Positions 250-19,642 of a stretch of 54,017 nucleotides of DNA are shown here, one piece after another (positions within the stretch are counted from its first letter, which is position 1; each line of letters begins with the position of its first letter). A program made the translations under genes and the position numbers. The stretch lies in NCBI GenBank assembly GCA_903854995.1, contig CAINXS010000067.1, positions 1 through 54,017 of the forward strand, written 5' to 3'. The stretch comes from Candidatus Moraniibacteriota bacterium. GTDB lineage: Bacteria > Patescibacteriota > Minisyncoccia > Moranbacterales > UBA1568. Below the pieces are notes generated by a model. That model saw nothing but the letters and a program-made list of their open reading frames with translations. It ran no database searches and was not told the DNA's origin.

Positions 250-600
250 TTAACTCTTTTTTTTGGCGGGTTTGTTCTCTGGTGGCGTGTCATTGATCTC
301 GATCAGTTCGTTTTTTTCGGGCTCCCTGACGAGCGGGACCCTGAACTGTGTATCGGACGCGATTTCCAGCACATTGTCGCAGAGGGGAGAAAGACCCTCT
401 TTTGATGTCGGCTCGGTGATCTGTTTCGATATCATTGGTGCTATTTTCAGTAAATGGTACTCAAACACCAATGTGGCATAGCCTGACGATTTACTATAGA
501 GTGTAAGCACGATCGGATTTCCGTTGAAGCCCAGATCTATCCTGGCACTTACGATCCGGTATTTCCCTTCAAGGGCGGACGGCTTTACTGTTTTCTTCAT
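250..600 (-). CDS. hypothetical protein (MKKTVKPSALEGKYRIVSAR...)
   Basis: ORF; ATG at 600 preceded by SD-like GAGGAG; bracketed by the 111-bp repeats. Confidence 0.6.
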   Translation of the reverse strand: MKKTVKPSALEGKYRIVSARIDLGFNGNPIVLTLYSKSSGYATLVFEYHLLKIAPMISKQITEPTSKEGLSPLCDNVLEIASDTQFRVPLVREPEKNELIEINDTPPENKPAKKKS

Positions 601-690
601 GGAAGTGTCTCCTCGATATTTTTGATTGACGAATTGATAAAGAAAAACTGTTTCAGAGGAGGCTATCATCCCGCGAAGGGAAAGTCAAGG

Positions 691-801: not shown

Positions 802-970
802 CGTTTTGGTGTGATTTGTGGGAAAGAGGGTAGTCGAGCTTTCGGGAGCGGGGCATCGCCTCGTCCTTTCGCCTTTCCCGAATACTTGACTGAAGAGCGA
901 AAATATGCTATGTTTTCAGTCAGTTGCTCAAAAAATGAATATTTTTTCACCGAAGTTCAAAGGAGGAGTT

Positions 971-1615
971 ATGTTGATCTGTAGACGTGAAGTAAGGCCG
1001 AATGGTGTTATCATCGCCGTTGACCAGTACCCTTTTCTGAAGAGCGGTCTTCGGGGTATCTTTCCGGAAGGAACTGTTTCGGAGGATAGTTCGATTCCGA
1101 AGTATAGAGGAGTGGTTAATCACAAGAATCCCACGAAAACTATTCGCGAAATAGCGGAACAATTGGCGGGAAATATCTCCAGCCGTCATGCCGACCAAAT
1201 TGTCGTTTCTGTGGCAACGCTCGCATTGTATGCCGGTTTTTCTCTCGACGTCGTCTTGACGGACCCGGATGCACGTGATGATCTCGACGATCTGCGTGAG
1301 GAAGACACGTTTATACTTCTCATGGCTGTCACGGTCGTTGTTCCGGGATCCGACTCGATGACGAAGACTTTTCGGAGAAGGATGCTCATCGATATTCCGG
1401 AATCCTGCGATGACTTTGACTTGGAGTCTTTGAGCGACGCGGATTTCCGCTCTTCCTCGCCAGGTAAGCCGTTTACGGGATACTTTCGTAATTTGGTTCT
1501 TCAGATTTTGAGAGACGAAGAATATCTCCTGGAATCCGTAAGCTGTTTTGTGAAGGCTTGCTGTTTGCGAGAAGGAGCTAGACATCTGTTGCGTGAAAAC
1601 GCTGTCGTTGCGTGA
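971..1615 (+). CDS. hypothetical protein (MLICRREVRPNGVIIAVDQYPFL...)
   Basis: ORF with strong SD aaaggaggagttATG. Confidence 0.7.
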   Translation: MLICRREVRPNGVIIAVDQYPFLKSGLRGIFPEGTVSEDSSIPKYRGVVNHKNPTKTIREIAEQLAGNISSRHADQIVVSVATLALYAGFSLDVVLTDPDARDDLDDLREEDTFILLMAVTVVVPGSDSMTKTFRRRMLIDIPESCDDFDLESLSDADFRSSSPGKPFTGYFRNLVLQILRDEEYLLESVSCFVKACCLREGARHLLRENAVVA

Positions 1616-18671: not shown

Positions 18672-18700
18672 TTGACAAAAAAATCATCCTGGTCTATTCT
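18672..18700 (+). promoter_or_regulatory. Strong sigma70-type promoter
   Basis: TTGACA-17 nt-TATTCT. Confidence 0.8.
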
Positions 18701-18768
18701 TGTATTGGAAGGCTGGTTCGTTTAACAGTTTTCCCGTTTTCAAAACTTTTTAACAAAAGGAGTTAGCC

Positions 18769-18939
18769 ATGAATCATGGAACTGGAACTCTGTCGTTACT
18801 GCTGACCAACGGCGGAAAGACGGGCAGGTTAATCGACAACGGCGATAAAAGGATTGAGGGTGGCCTGAACCGCATCTTCCCAGGCAACTCTTCCATCGCT
18901 GTCGCTGACCTCGGCCAGAACTACTCTACCGCTGCTTGA
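18769..18939 (+). CDS. 56-aa small protein of unknown function (not in the ORF track)
   Basis: MNHGTGTLSLLLTNGGKTGRLIDNGDKRIEGGLNRIFPGNSSIAVADLGQNYSTAA*; SD AAAAGGAG 6 nt before ATG; own promoter and terminator. Confidence 0.8.
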   Translation: MNHGTGTLSLLLTNGGKTGRLIDNGDKRIEGGLNRIFPGNSSIAVADLGQNYSTAA

Positions 18940-18960
18940 GGTAAAATAACCTGGCAGCTT

Positions 18961-19000
18961 GGCACCGCGCGCTTATTGCGTCGCGGTGCCGATTTTTTTT
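18961..19000 (+). terminator. Intrinsic terminator of the small-ORF transcript
   Basis: GGCACCGCG...CGCGGTGCC followed by gatttttttt. Confidence 0.92.
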
Positions 19001-19165: not shown

Positions 19166-19642
19166 CTATTCTCCCGTCGTTTTCATCGACGGGTTTTCCG
19201 GATAGTTTTCCTTTTCCAGGGTTTCAAAAAGGAAGAGAATCTTTTCGTATTTTTCCTTGACGCGATCCATATATTCGTCATCGGGATGTTCCGGCAGGCC
19301 GACCTGTTCCGACGGACGTTCGGAGCCTTCTTGCGCGGCTTTTTCGGGAGCGGACGGGAAGACGACCGATTCGAATTCTTCGATCGCTAACTTCACTTTC
19401 TCGGACGTTCCCTCCGGGAACTTTGTCGCTTTCGCACTCACAAAGAGGTCGCGTATCCGTTTTTCGGCCTCCCCCCTGTGGCTCGGGTCGTCAACGGATG
19501 CCGCCCGTATCGCCATGACGATATGGCTGAGGCAGTGCCGGATTTTTCCCTCGTCGCCCGTCCCCCGGGCCAGCTCTTTACGGTACTCTTTGAGGGCATC
19601 CTGCACCTTCGGATTTAGAAAGTGAGGGGATTCTGTTGGCAT
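19166..19642 (-). CDS. hypothetical protein
   Basis: 158-aa charged ORF in a region with no competing ORF. Confidence 0.6.
   Translation of the reverse strand: MPTESPHFLNPKVQDALKEYRKELARGTGDEGKIRHCLSHIVMAIRAASVDDPSHRGEAEKRIRDLFVSAKATKFPEGTSEKVKLAIEEFESVVFPSAPEKAAQEGSERPSEQVGLPEHPDDEYMDRVKEKYEKILFLFETLEKENYPENPSMKTTGE

What the first reader, a model, noticed from the sequence alone, without database searches (positions are those of the whole stretch)
18672..19000. Stand-alone small-protein gene (56 aa) with complete expression signals, absent from the ORF track
TTGACA-17-TATTCT promoter, AAAAGGAG SD 6 nt before ATG, 56-codon ORF (MNHGTGTLSLLLTNGGKTGRLIDNGDKRIEGGLNRIFPGNSSIAVADLGQNYSTAA) and a strong hairpin plus T8 terminator define an approximately 290-nt monocistronic transcript. 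Expression signals this good are rare in the window. The peptide is Gly/Asn-rich, with no evident TM segment and no Cys, and I recognise no family. It could be an abundant small structural, nucleic-acid-binding or secreted protein, or a dual-function RNA.
Basis: partly seen in the sequence, partly recalled or inferred. Interest (0 to 1): 0.78.

Follow-up and report, generated by a model that had tools for sequence, protein, structure and literature searches.

The report
Orphan small-protein gene with boxA-like leader
This is a real but very lineage-restricted 56-residue protein gene in an ultra-small uncultured bacterium, and its upstream leader carries a short RNA motif, resembling the one that protects ribosomal RNA transcription from early stopping, that recurs in front of dozens of mostly unknown single genes in its relatives.

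Summary
In detail: TTGACA-17-TATTCT, AAAAGGAG six bases before ATG, a 56-codon ORF (18769-18939) and a strong hairpin plus T8 terminator. The ORF most likely encodes protein: codon usage fits this forward frame only (p=0.004). The RNA body is not unusually folded (ORF z=-0.6), no Rfam family matches, and the genome's tmRNA lies elsewhere. No other held genome has a recognisable full-length homologue. A Moraniibacteriota relative (G005) has, in the same dgkA-ftsA gap, a 34-aa gene with an identical 18-nt leader segment and a weakly similar C-terminus (p=1.6e-4), plus a second orphan small gene. The leader is the more interesting part. Across the genus, genes with this promoter/SD layout share a leader motif, found de novo as GTTCTTTAACAA, that matches boxA, the NusB-S10 site of rRNA operons. 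It holds up in held-out leaders, in other families of the order, and in the genus's own 16S leaders. These genes are mostly orphans, often with their own terminator. The window copy is a divergent member (one inserted base). Such signals are therefore not unique: 17 matches in the genome, three in the window. I read the gene as one member of a boxA-led class of free-standing orphan genes. NusB binding is inferred, not shown.

The parts
18672..18700 (+). sigma-70-type promoter TTGACA-17-TATTCT
   Evidence: 10 of 12 consensus matches; matched by the module pattern; aligned with TTGACG...TATCAT at the same spacing in G005
18707..18735 (+). 5' leader hairpin GGAAGGCTG/CAGTTTTCC with a 10-nt loop GTTCGTTTAA, at the predicted 5' end of the transcript
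   Evidence: fold (leader z=-1.6); inner 5 pairs GGCTG/CAGYT kept in G005, outer pairs not
18715..18726 (+). boxA-like element GTTCGTTTAACA (consensus GTTCTTTAACAA with one inserted base), inside the 18-nt stretch GGCTGGTTCGTTTAACAG (18711-18728) identical in G005
   Evidence: 9.2 bits against the motif; identical in G005 at the same locus; motif found de novo and validated
18755..18762 (+). Shine-Dalgarno AAAAGGAG, 6 nt before ATG
   Evidence: sequence
18769..18939 (+). 56-codon ORF with stop TGA, orphan small protein
   Evidence: codon-usage score exceeds shuffles in this frame (p=0.004; other two forward frames 0.64 and 0.81); C-terminal 22 aa resemble the G005 34-aa protein (p=1.6e-4)
18961..19000 (+). 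intrinsic terminator: G+C-rich hairpin followed by T8
   Evidence: -27.3 kcal/mol, z=-6.4

Best explanation
The locus is a free-standing, monocistronic gene for a fast-evolving, genus-restricted 56-residue protein. It belongs to a class of self-contained units in this Moranbacteria-type lineage: strong TTGAC/TANNNT promoter, short leader with a boxA-like element, strong SD, mostly orphan ORF, often its own terminator. Proposed mechanism: RNA polymerase starts near 18707 and transcribes the boxA-like sequence. NusB with ribosomal protein S10 (NusE) binds it on the nascent RNA, as at the rRNA leaders, and loads the Nus complex on polymerase, which tunes elongation, termination or translation of the short mRNA. 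The ribosome then makes the small protein and transcription ends at the hairpin-T8. Shown: the anatomy, coding bias, conserved leader, motif enrichment, and the motif in the genus's 16S leaders. Inferred: transcription, NusB-S10 binding, the direction of regulation. The protein's biochemical role stays open; nothing ties it to DgkA or FtsA/FtsZ beyond position.
For: Coding: frame-specific codon bias in the window ORF (p=0.004) and in both G005 small ORFs (p=0.0005 each). Homology: same dgkA-ftsA gap in G005, 18-nt identical leader, C-terminal similarity. Class: pattern matches 17/49/27 in G000/G001/G005 against 1/0/0 reversed. Motif GTTCTTTAACAA from 58 leaders, log-likelihood 108 against 34-36 in shuffles. 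Held-out genus leaders 27 of 43 at 6 bits or more against 5.3 shuffled; other families 18 of 38 against 3.9. The published boxA consensus GYTCTTTAANA (PMC5725501) with up to 2 mismatches: 24 of 52 leaders against 2.6 shuffled and 0 reversed. Variants in 16S leaders 34-54 nt after the promoter, each p<=0.04. Module proteins: 12 Pfam families in 49 proteins against 9 of 10 ordinary window genes with a Pfam match. Terminators after 27 of 49 module genes against 3 of 17 control genes and 2 of 60 random sites.
Against: The window copy departs from boxA by an inserted base (GTTC-G-TTTAACA), or 3 mismatches to the strict consensus. It may sit in the loop of a 5' hairpin, unlike single-stranded rrn boxA. 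NusB was not looked for in this genome. Only one relative carries a homologue, and its protein is hardly similar. No expression data. Held-out leaders include some orthologues of training ones, so counts are not fully independent. The pattern selects strong-promoter genes, so the orphan excess may partly reflect that operon genes lack their own promoter. The ORF's codon score is lower than that of most ordinary genes (-0.11 against about 0.2-0.4 per codon).
Confidence: 0.55

Rival explanations
1. Ordinary orphan small-protein gene; the shared leader motif is a generic translation enhancer or unstructured standby site rather than a NusB-S10 site.
For: The motif sits between promoter and SD, at variable distance to both (mean 16 nt from the -10, 21 nt to the SD), and is rich in A and U. 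It also precedes genes with known families (radical SAM, nucleotidyltransferase).
Against: G1, C4 and C10 positions and strand specificity fit boxA; it matches a published consensus not derived from these data and recurs in the untranslated 16S leaders.
Confidence: 0.3
2. Small regulatory RNA of about 294 nt with a chance ORF.
For: Promoter and terminator define a short transcript; leader conserved better than ORF; whole-transcript fold z=-5.75.
Against: The z-score comes from the terminator: ORF z=-0.6, leader z=-1.6. SD, start and frame-specific codon bias. No Rfam match at E<=10. Only part of the leader is conserved.
Confidence: 0.1
3. SOS-type regulated gene: the CTG-N10-CAG dyad just after the predicted start of transcription is a LexA operator.
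For: CTGGTTCGTTTAACAG has the spacing of an enterobacterial LexA box.
Against: The genus's own LexA-like gene next to a dinB-like gene has a different box, GGGAACATATGTTCCC.
Confidence: 0.03

Closest known systems
boxA (NusB-NusE recognition element) in rRNA leaders and in mRNA leaders such as suhB (Baniulyte et al. 2017, PMC5725501)
   Same: Motif GTTCTTTAACAA, location in the transcribed leader, presence of variants in the genus's own 16S leaders
   Different: Found in many mRNA leaders per genome (9-49 pattern matches, most with the motif) rather than 0-7 per gammaproteobacterial genome, though with a looser definition; genes are mostly orphans; the window copy has one extra base and may lie in a hairpin loop
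Taxonomically restricted (orphan) bacterial small-protein genes
   Same: Short ORF with good SD, no homologues outside the genus, fast divergence
   Different: Carries a leader module shared with many unrelated genes

Membership tests
boxA element | Sequence consensus GYTCTTTAANA | tested here: inconclusive
   The class meets it (24 of 52 leaders within 2 mismatches against 2.6 shuffled); the window copy needs one inserted base (3 mismatches)
boxA element | Present in rRNA operon leaders of the same organism | tested here: met
   GAACATTTACAA 53 nt after the 16S promoter in G000; similar in four other genomes
boxA element | Bound by NusB-S10 as RNA | not testable with these tools
   needs biochemistry
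boxA element | NusB encoded in the genome | not tested
Small protein-coding gene | Coding-type codon usage in the ORF frame | tested here: met
   p=0.004, other two forward frames not significant
Small protein-coding gene | Homologues with coding-type substitutions | tested here: inconclusive
   one syntenic relative, 6 of 22 identical C-terminal residues; too diverged for a synonymous/nonsynonymous ratio
Known structured RNA (Rfam, tmRNA) | Match to a covariance model | tested here: not met
   no match at E<=10; tmRNA lies on another contig
LexA operator | Same box as upstream of the genus's lexA-like gene | tested here: not met
   GGGAACATATGTTCCC, unrelated

The most novel reading that the evidence does not exclude
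In Moranbacteria-type Patescibacteria the boxA/Nus system is not reserved for rRNA: it is a general leader module that controls dozens of free-standing, mostly orphan genes, coupling their expression to free NusB-S10, that is, to ribosome production and growth.
Probability: 0.35. Interest if true: 0.75.

Novelty: new variant of a known kind. Interest (0 to 1): 0.5.

Why it matters
Little is known about transcription control in Patescibacteria, and few have been cultivated. A leader motif shared by rRNA operons and by many orphan single-gene units gives a testable handle on which unknown genes are expressed together. It would extend Nus-factor control of mRNAs from a few genes per genome to a large class. 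It also offers a way to find small genes that length cut-offs hide.

Tried and rejected
(1) tmRNA or tmRNA-like (the peptide ends ...QNYSTAA): the genome's tmRNA is elsewhere, tag ANITQKVKAAFASAFAPSFASVLA. (2) Structured RNA: the fold signal comes from the terminator only. (3) LexA/SOS operator. (4) Phage or plasmid origin: no matches to the protein; 6 PHROG families among 49 module proteins. (5) Leader 18-mer in 85,462 species: 3 hits, only the G005 contig meaningful; the other two lie in unrelated contexts. (6) Homology of the window ORF to the second G005 small gene: not significant. (7) Structure prediction of the single sequence: mean pLDDT 55, uninformative.

Full report
What is there. 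The claimed signals are all present: TTGACA-17-TATTCT, AAAAGGAG, ATG at 18769, TGA at 18937-18939, then a hairpin and T8. The neighbours are ybeY and dgkA upstream, and ftsA, ftsZ and nrdR downstream.

Protein or RNA. The complete transcript folds with z=-5.75, but dissection gives leader -1.6, ORF -0.6, terminator -6.4, so the signal is the terminator. There is no Rfam match at E<=10. Codon usage learned from window genes favours the ORF frame (p=0.004) and not the other two forward frames (0.64, 0.81); one reverse frame reaches 0.034. The two small ORFs of G005 give p=0.0005 each in their own frame. I conclude that it is translated.

Conservation. The protein has no match in 95 other relatives, in viral contigs, phages or plasmids. 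DNA comparison found one informative stretch: 24 bases in G005, in the same dgkA-ftsA gap. That gap (L087) holds two small genes. Gene B has TTGACG...TATCAT, the identical GGCTGGTTCGTTTAACAG, an SD, 34 codons and a downstream hairpin. Gene A has TTGACG-17-TACCAT, GTTGCTTACAAT, an SD, 63 codons and a hairpin with T-run. Anchored at the stop codon without gaps, the last 22 residues of the window protein and of protein B score 27 (shuffle p=1.6e-4). This anchoring was chosen after inspection; the best ungapped local alignment gives p=0.05. The leader is therefore better conserved than the protein. Three other genus members (G001, G002, G003) have short gaps in which I saw no such gene, and G004 has what looks like an IS200-type element at both contig ends.

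The leader belongs to a class. A strict pattern (TTGAC-N18-TANNNT, 38-68 nt, GGAG, start) matches 17, 49, 21, 20, 9 and 27 times in G000 to G005, against 0-1 for the reversed pattern. De novo motif search in 58 leaders gave GTTCTTTAACAA (log-likelihood 108 against 34-36 for shuffles). In sequences not used for training, 27 of 43 genus leaders reach 6 bits (shuffled 5.3, maximum 11) and 18 of 38 leaders from two other families of the order (shuffled 3.9, maximum 7); reversed and reverse-complement controls are low. The motif resembles the boxA of rRNA operons. The gammaproteobacterial consensus GYTCTTTAANA was taken from Baniulyte et al. 2017 (PMC5725501), independently of these data; with up to two mismatches it is met by 24 of 52 leaders against 2.6 in shuffles and 0 reversed. 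The 16S leaders of the genus carry variants, GAACATTTACAA and GAACTTTTACAA, 53-54 nt after the rRNA promoter. The window copy, GTTCGTTTAACA, scores 9.2 bits but has one extra base.

What the class contains. Of 49 downstream proteins, 12 Pfam families are found, each in one member, so at most 12 proteins have a Pfam match. Nine of ten ordinary window genes have one. A terminator lies within 130 nt of 27 of 49 module genes, against 3 of 17 other window genes and 2 of 60 random places. Two small paralogue groups exist among them. The window has two more module genes at its left end, divergent, 116 and 214 aa.

Mechanism. By analogy with rRNA and suhB leaders, NusB-S10 would bind the nascent element and load the Nus complex. 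Whether this raises or lowers expression cannot be said: in E. coli the complex prevents termination at rRNA but represses suhB (PMC5725501). In this window the element may lie in the loop of a 5' hairpin, an alternative or additional feature. The gene product has no confident predicted fold (mean pLDDT 55), no known family and little net charge; its role is unknown and I do not assign one.

Novelty. A search of the held papers found no report of boxA or NusB in Patescibacteria leaders; most subscription papers are not held. Nus control of mRNAs is known for a few genes per genome. A large orphan-gene class is, as far as I can test, new.

Noticed in passing
window 598-688 (-) and 886-973 (+): Divergent pair of the same promoter-leader-SD module in front of a 116-aa and a 214-aa protein.
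   Followed up: partly
L087 (G005 dgkA-ftsA gap; coordinates about 420-900 of the reverse complement): A second orphan small gene (63 aa, GTG start...FFTAGGGCCHSPEVSGYKMANKA) with its own promoter, boxA-like GTTGCTTACAAT and terminator; no convincing homologue in the other relatives searched.
   Followed up: partly
L132 / G000:C72:1-1700: LexA-like regulator beside a dinB-like gene with the box GGGAACATATGTTCCC; G001 has the same box and G005 a diverged one.
   Followed up: partly
L088 end and L089 start (G004): What looks like an IS200-type element occupies the dgkA-ftsA gap at both contig ends; the gap varies strongly within the genus although FtsA is 99% identical between G000 and G004.
   Followed up: no
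window 19166-19642 (-): A 158-aa ORF in the same gap with no Pfam or NCBIfam family; not seen in the G005 gap.
   Followed up: no
L172, L190, L210 and L182, L211, L212: Two paralogue groups of unknown proteins whose genes carry the module leader (phmmer down to about 1e-19).
   Followed up: no
L180 and L204: Two related leaders from different species carry the hairpin-flanked GTTCTTTC motif and an 11- or 12-codon ORF, possibly a leader peptide or a mis-set start.
   Followed up: no
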